Of a DNA stretch of 64,000 nucleotides, positions 30,315 through 31,198 are shown piece by piece. Within the stretch, counting starts at the first letter, position 1. Each line of letters starts with the position of its first letter. Under the pieces are notes generated by a model. That model was not told where the DNA came from, did no database searches, and saw only the letters and a list, made by a program, of their open reading frames with translations. The stretch is taken from NCBI RefSeq assembly GCF_003332275.1, contig NZ_QOVA01000005.1, positions 124,001 to 188,000 on the forward strand, read 5' to 3'. Source of the stretch: Edaphovirga cremea (lineage in GTDB: Bacteria; Pseudomonadota; Gammaproteobacteria; Enterobacterales; Enterobacteriaceae). The position numbers were made by a program, and so were the translations under genes.

Positions 30315-31198
30315 ATGAATAACGCAACGAAATACCCCATTATTCTCGTTCATGGCCTGTTCGGCTTCGATACTATTTTAGGCTATCCCTACTTCTTTAA
30401 TATCAAGCCTGCATTGGAGGCTCACGGAGCAACCGTTTTCACTGTGACTCTCTCGGCGGCAAACGGAAATGATGTAAGAGGTGAACAATTACTCGATTTT
30501 ATAGAAGGCGTGTTGACGAAAACCGGCGTCCAAAAAGTCAATTTGATCGGTCACAGCCAGGGACCACTGGCCTGTCGCTATGCCGCCGCCATGCGCCCTG
30601 ACTGGGTCGCATCGGTAACATCCGTGAATGGCGTCAACCATGGTTCGGAATTTGCTGATATGGTGAGAATGGCCTTCACTCCCGGAAGCCTGCCTGAGGC
30701 AACCGCAGAAGCCGTGATTGATGCCTTTGCCTCTTTCATGTCATTACTCAGCGGACATCCTGAACTTCCGCAAGACGCGATCGCCGCGTTGGATGCGCTC
30801 ACCACAGCGGGTGTTGCAGAATTCAATCGCCAGTATCCGCAAGGGTTGCCAACGGTGTGGGGAGGTGAAGGCGATGAAACCGTGAATGGCGTCAATTACT
30901 ATTCATGGGGTGGCTATATTCAAGGTGGCGTGTTTGCGCAGGCATTAAATGCTGCCGACCCTTTACACAAGGCCATGAAAATCTGCTCGTTATTCTTTAC
31001 GCGTTTACGCGCGAGAGGGAACAAAATGACGGCGTTGTCGGGCGCTACAGTATGCATCTCGGTAAAGTCATACGCTCCGACTATTCTATGGATCATCTGG
31101 ATGCGGTCAATCAGACGGCCGGTGTCACACCACTTTCCACTCATGTTGTGACGATGTTCGTCGATCATCTGAAATTATTGCAAAGTAAAGGCTTATAG
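30315..31198 (+). pseudogene. triacylglycerol lipase (Proteus/Pseudomonas family I.1 type), frameshifted by an 8-bp duplication
   Basis: Begins MNNATKYPIILVHGLFGFDT and keeps the nucleophile elbow GHSQG (S81), NGVNHGSEFADMV and YYSWGGYIQGGVF, closely resembling Proteus mirabilis lipase. After FFT the frame runs into an unrelated tail and stops at 31149-31151. The native end (QNDGVVGRYSMHLGKVIRSD, MDHLDAVNQTAGVTPLSTH) lies in another frame up to 31198. TTTACGCG occurs twice in tandem at 30996-31011; removing one copy restores FFTREREQNDGVVG exactly and gives a 291-residue lipase. The catalytic Asp (NDG) and His (DHLD) both lie after the break, so the truncated 278-residue form should be inactive. 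No Sec signal peptide, as in the Proteus-type enzymes. Confidence 0.9.

What the first reader, a model, noticed from the sequence alone, without database searches (positions are those of the whole stretch)
30996..31011. An 8-bp tandem duplication inactivates a lipase and could be reversible
TTTACGCG is present twice in direct succession inside the lipase gene. Taking out one copy restores the Proteus-type lipase frame exactly (FFTREREQNDGVVGRYSMHL). In the present form the protein loses the catalytic Asp and His while S81 remains. Two copies of a short repeat can revert by slippage, so it may be a recent mutation or an on/off state rather than old decay.
Basis: partly seen in the sequence, partly recalled or inferred. 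Interest (0 to 1): 0.68.

Follow-up and report, generated by a model that had tools for sequence, protein, structure and literature searches.

The report
Lipase gene broken by short duplication
A bacterial fat-digesting enzyme gene carries an eight-letter sequence twice in a row, which breaks the gene; it looks like an ordinary recent knock-out mutation, not a proven on/off switch.

Summary
TTTACGCG stands twice, head to tail and exactly, at 30996-31011. It lies where a Proteus/psychrophilic-type family I.1 lipase changes reading frame: intact relatives match frame 1 before it and frame 3 after it. Between two conserved motifs the window has 131 nt; 11 of 26 relatives, the closest included, have 123. 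The open frame ends at 31151 and keeps Ser81, not the triad's Asp and His. The repeat alone is chance-level (0.87 expected per 64 kb); its coincidence with the frame break is not (about 4e-4 for a 30-bp interval).

None of the 25 homologous genes reported in 22 other sampled genomes is interrupted (score limits would hide badly decayed copies). None of 26 relatives has a tandem 8-mer at the site. All 77 residues invariant in the 15 closer relatives are kept on both sides of the break, so the lesion is young, or an artefact.

'Recent mutation' is supported. 'On/off state' is not: two copies, no repeat there in relatives, no second strain or reads. Ordinary young pseudogene; low interest.

The parts
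30996..31003 (+). first copy of TTTACGCG
31004..31011 (+). second copy of TTTACGCG, directly adjacent; the frame break lies here
30315..31151 (+). open reading frame of 278 aa: truncated Proteus/psychrophilic-type family I.1 lipase; lipase up to about residue 228-230, out of frame after that
31004..31198 (+). C-terminal lipase remnant in the other frame, up to its stop codon
   Evidence: frame-3 tblastn matches of relatives; found as a separate match by the L024 lipase; stop codon
30555..30557 (+). codon of the catalytic Ser81 (GHSQG), in the open frame
   Evidence: corresponds to S79 of P. mirabilis lipase (PMC3530535 section 9)
31028..31030 (+). codon of the catalytic Asp, stranded out of frame
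   Evidence: D232 in P. mirabilis lipase
31094..31096 (+). codon of the catalytic His, stranded out of frame; 22 residues after the Asp, as D232-H254 in P. mirabilis lipase
31259..32200 (-). LysR-type regulator, convergent neighbour; link to the lipase not shown
   Evidence: not found in the flanks held of the relatives' lipases

Best explanation
This is a lipase gene recently knocked out by one 8-bp tandem duplication, a chance mutation. Shown: the exact duplication, the switch of homology from frame 1 to frame 3 around it, the excess spacing of 8 nt against the closest relatives, and strong conservation of both halves. Inferred: the duplication arose in one step during replication or break repair, and the 278-aa product is inactive because it lacks the catalytic Asp and His and the C-terminal part of the fold. 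Loss of a copy by slippage is possible in principle, as for any short tandem duplication, but nothing indicates that it is used as a switch.
For: Relatives match frame 1 before the repeat and frame 3 after it (with the closest relative, L024: residues 1-235 and 222-287 as two separate matches). The YYSW-to-DG distance is 131 nt against 123 nt in 11 of 26 relatives, L024 included; the other 15 have 32-39 codons. 25 of 25 homologous genes reported in 22 other genomes cover at least 283 of the 287 or 288 query residues without an internal stop (13 genes in 12 genomes; 12 genes in 10 genomes). 0 of 77 columns invariant in 15 relatives are changed in the window (60 N-part, 17 C-part), as in the intact L024 (0 of 60 and 0 of 17); this bounds neutral divergence since the break at about 1.7% per site (95%). 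Majority-residue changes are like those of L024 (N-part 7 against 8; C-part 4 against 2).
Against: No reads and no second strain were available, so the mutation is seen in one assembly only. The junction has no flanking microhomology, so classical slippage is not specially favoured as its origin. The C-part has 4 unique changes against 2 in L024, too few to judge. Several frame-1 matches stop well before the repeat, at 30914-30977, and three frame-3 matches start before it, at 30971-30983, so homology alone does not place the break to the base.
Confidence: 0.8

Rival explanations
1. Assembly, sequencing or culture artefact: the natural genome has a working gene.
For: The gene shows no other decay. 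The genome is a draft of 70 contigs, and no reads could be examined.
Against: An 8-bp exact duplication is not a homopolymer-type error, and a 16-bp array is shorter than usual reads and k-mers (general knowledge). The assembly is rated 100% complete and 0.49% contaminated, which does not test single indels.
Confidence: 0.12
2. Reversible contingency (phase-variation) locus in which the copy number of the 8-bp unit turns lipase on and off.
For: The gene is otherwise intact. Tandem-repeat frameshift switches exist, for example the tetranucleotide repeat in icaC of S. aureus: RecA-independent, about 1 revertant per 45,000 divisions (PMC4117637, passages seen).
Against: Only two copies. 0 of 26 relatives have a tandem 8-mer at the site, and none has TTTACGCG in the coding strand of the gene. 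The number of such repeats in the window is at chance level. No strain variation could be observed.
Confidence: 0.04
3. Footprint of an insertion sequence that made an 8-bp target duplication and then left.
For: The genome holds a few transposases of families that I recall as making 8-9-bp target duplications: PF00872 (IS256 type) 1 match; PF13610 (IS6 type) 4 matches at 3 places; PF03050 (IS66 type) 4 matches, of which two are pieces of one place with a stop inside and two overlap the PF13610 places. Exact edges without microhomology fit a target duplication.
Against: The copies touch with no foreign base between them; excision that leaves both copies clean is rare in bacteria (general knowledge). 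A search for target duplications around 3 of these loci (L031-L033) found none, but it demanded 12 exact bases of inverted repeat within the held flanks, so it is weak.
Confidence: 0.03
4. Programmed frameshifting or a split lipase made of two open frames.
For: Both halves are conserved and open.
Against: 25 of 25 homologous genes reported in 22 other genomes are uninterrupted. A young break explains the conservation.
Confidence: 0.01

Closest known systems
[quoted passage not shown] that 4gw3 is the P. mirabilis lipase is recalled)
   Same: The first 232-236 residues match at E 2.2e-89 (6cl4), 7.9e-83 (3w9u) and 9.5e-83 (4gw3); Ser in G-X-S-X-G; the out-of-frame remnant holds the Asp and His at the spacing of D232 and H254.
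   Different: The window's frame ends before the Asp and His; as it stands it cannot form the triad.
Young bacterial pseudogenes (interrupted coding sequences) made by a short indel
   Same: One frameshifting indel in an otherwise conserved gene.
   Different: Only the particular gene and the size of the duplication.
Tandem-repeat phase variation (icaC of S. aureus, PMC4117637, passages seen)
   Same: A change in the number of a short tandem unit shifts the reading frame.
   Different: icaC varies among isolates and was seen to revert; here there are two copies, one genome and no variation observed.

Membership tests
Proteus/psychrophilic-type lipase I.1 | Sequence homology to the solved lipases of this branch and their relatives | tested here: met
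Proteus/psychrophilic-type lipase I.1 | Complete Ser-Asp-His triad in one reading frame | tested here: not met
   Ser81 in frame; Asp (31028) and His (31094) out of frame
Proteus/psychrophilic-type lipase I.1 | Lipase activity and foldase-independent folding | not testable with these tools
   needs expression and assay
Young pseudogene | Single disabling lesion while relatives are intact | tested here: met
   the relatives are a sample with E-value limits
Young pseudogene | No relaxation of constraint detectable | tested here: met
   0 of 77 invariant columns changed
Phase-variable contingency locus | Array of several short repeats with varying copy number among strains | tested here: inconclusive
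   two copies only; no second strain held; no tandem 8-mer at the site in 26 relatives
Phase-variable contingency locus | Measured high-frequency reversible switching | not testable with these tools
   needs cultures or reads
Insertion-sequence excision footprint | Resident element with an 8-bp target duplication | tested here: inconclusive
   candidate transposases present; strict search around 3 loci found no target duplication

The most novel reading that the evidence does not exclude
The two-copy 8-bp duplication is a low-frequency reversible switch that lets a mixed population carry lipase-on and lipase-off cells.
Probability: 0.04. Interest if true: 0.4.

Novelty: new member of a known kind. 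Interest (0 to 1): 0.13.

Why it matters
It is a clean example of a gene caught soon after inactivation, and a warning that the 278-aa frame still scores as an alpha/beta hydrolase and lipase although two of its three catalytic residues are out of frame. It is the only member of this lipase family that the search of its genome found, so the isolate may lack this activity. Beyond that it is ordinary.

Tried and rejected
Programmed frameshift or split protein: rejected because the 25 homologous genes reported in 22 other genomes are uninterrupted. Those searches were samples (295 genomes of the family, 369 of the class, the own genome included in both) with E-value limits of 1e-30 and 1e-40, so badly decayed copies could have been missed. 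Old decay: rejected because both halves are conserved. DNA-level relatives: among 40 genomes, the own one included, one other had a match, of 53 bp, of no use for strain comparison; the genus search held only the own genome. Insertion-sequence footprint: three family searches and a strict flank search around 3 loci gave nothing decisive; other transposase families were not searched. Synteny: maeB, the UPF0178-like gene, the endolysin remnant and the LysR gene were not found in the held flanks of the relatives' lipases at E 1e-6 (flanks at most about 1.5 or 4 kb, some shorter). No tRNA gene lies in the window.

Literature: the listings showed no paper on this lesion. One search found the P. mirabilis lipase structure paper. 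PMC3530535 was seen as passages and section 9, PMC4117637 as passages; all other papers as listings only.

Rows dropped: L016 (a chance match, not a lipase) and L003 (cut at a contig end) were left out of the 26 relatives, as were L001 and L029 (own genome) and L030 (the same two genes as L025). L002 is one of the two genes of G029, which one search also counts. The invariant-column count used 15 of the 26 relatives, the closer ones, chosen by me. In the same table the intact relatives changed 0 to 6 columns each in the N-part and 0 or 1 in the C-part.

Mended then: the ends of the frame-3 and PDB matches, the number of genomes, the width of the break interval, the limits, and one bench proposal that I moved to the referred steps.

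Full report
Observation. The 16 bases at 30996-31011 are two adjacent copies of TTTACGCG. It is the only perfect 8-bp tandem duplication in the 64-kb window; a first-order Markov model expects 0.87 (30 sequences, maximum 5). So the repeat alone means little. Its edges are exact, with no flanking microhomology.

The gene. The frame 30315-31151 (278 aa) matches Pfam Abhydrolase_1 (9.6e-19) and, just above its cut-off, Lipase_2. In the PDB 21 distinct sequences match; the five best (6cl4 Lipase C12 at 2.2e-89, 3w9u, 4gw3, 6jd9, 4hs9) end at residues 232-236 and the more distant ones earlier. I take this to be the Proteus/psychrophilic branch of lipase family I.1. In P. mirabilis lipase the serine is S79, and D232 activates H254 (PMC3530535, section 9). 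In the window the serine is residue 81. The motifs with the Asp (codon 31028) and the His (codon 31094), 22 residues apart as in P. mirabilis, lie in frame 3 and are lost from the open frame.

The break. In tblastn with 13 related lipases (L003-L015) the frame-1 matches end between 30914 and 31022. Twelve of the 13 also have a frame-3 match, starting between 30971 and 31025; nine of these end at 31195, two at 31192 and one (L015) at 31126. L003 is cut at a contig end and shows frame 1 only. The ends scatter because local alignments stop early or run over; the closest named relative by identity, L013, has frame 1 to 31022 and frame 3 from 31004. The own genome searched with L024, the closest relative found, gives residues 1-235 and 222-287 as two matches. 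Between the motifs YYSW and DG the window has 131 nt; 11 of 26 relatives, among them L024, have 41 codons (123 nt), and the other 15 have 32-39 codons. So the window is longer than the closest relatives by exactly the size of the duplication. The chance that a perfect 8-bp tandem falls in a 30-bp interval is about 4e-4; for the widest span of match ends it is about 1.5e-3 (my arithmetic from the same rate).

Relatives. The family search gave 13 of 295 genomes with a homologue at E 1e-30, the own genome included; the 13 genes of the other 12 are uninterrupted. The class search gave 11 of 369 at E 1e-40, the own genome included; the 12 genes of the other 10 are likewise uninterrupted. All 25 cover at least 283 of the 287 or 288 query residues. 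The limits on E would hide badly decayed copies. In 26 relatives compared at the DNA level none has a tandem 8-mer at the site.

Age. With the two halves aligned apart to 15 of the 26 relatives, the window changes 0 of 60 invariant columns in the N-part and 0 of 17 in the C-part. The intact L024 also changes none, and other intact relatives change 0 to 6 and 0 to 1. From those 77 codons the neutral divergence since inactivation is below about 1.7% per site at 95% (it assumes equal rates of all base changes). Changes against the majority residue are 7 in the window and 8 in L024 (N-part), 4 and 2 (C-part). The lesion is therefore young, or an artefact of assembly or culture.

Switch or mutation. 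A two-copy array can lose a copy, so reversion is possible in principle. A published switch of this general type, icaC in S. aureus, reverted at about 1 per 45,000 divisions, and 9 isolates (about 9% of the genomes examined) varied in the repeat (PMC4117637, passages). Here there is no variation to see: one genome in the genus, no reads, two copies. I put the switch at 0.04.

Context. The gene lies between maeB (named from its sequence by recall) with an endolysin remnant, and a convergent LysR-type gene. None of four neighbours tested was found in the flanks held of the relatives' lipases, so the position does not appear to be shared. It is the only member of this lipase family that the search of the genome found. 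Two other genes within 6 kb also look broken: an amiA-like amidase with an internal deletion and the endolysin remnant. That fits plain loss of single genes better than a purpose-built switch, but it is weak evidence.

Verdict. Observation confirmed; 'recent mutation' supported; 'on/off state' unsupported. An ordinary young pseudogene, or less likely an assembly artefact. The organism was not identified.

Noticed in passing
window 25119-25515: A gene just before the coproporphyrinogen oxidase gene looks like an amiA-type amidase with a large internal deletion: the C-terminal piece matches Amidase_3 positions 135-173 of 174. The N-terminal piece has no Pfam match; its naming (twin-arginine-like start, DPGH motif) is from recall.
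   Followed up: partly
window 29631-29975: Remnant of a phage endolysin beside the lipase (phrog_465, best stretch at positions 40-79 of 292, two stretches; no Pfam match). That it is internally deleted is my reading.
   Followed up: partly
window 33261-33701: HTH protein that matches phrog_5119 (5.5e-35) and, below the curated cut-off, the MqsA antitoxin model TIGR03830.
   Followed up: no
window 31850-33199: A+T-rich stretch (37-39% G+C, against 52% for the window) beside the LysR gene, possibly foreign DNA.
   Followed up: no
L025 and L030 (G265:C28:61206-62992): A relative carries two tandem copies of this lipase gene, both uninterrupted.
   Followed up: no
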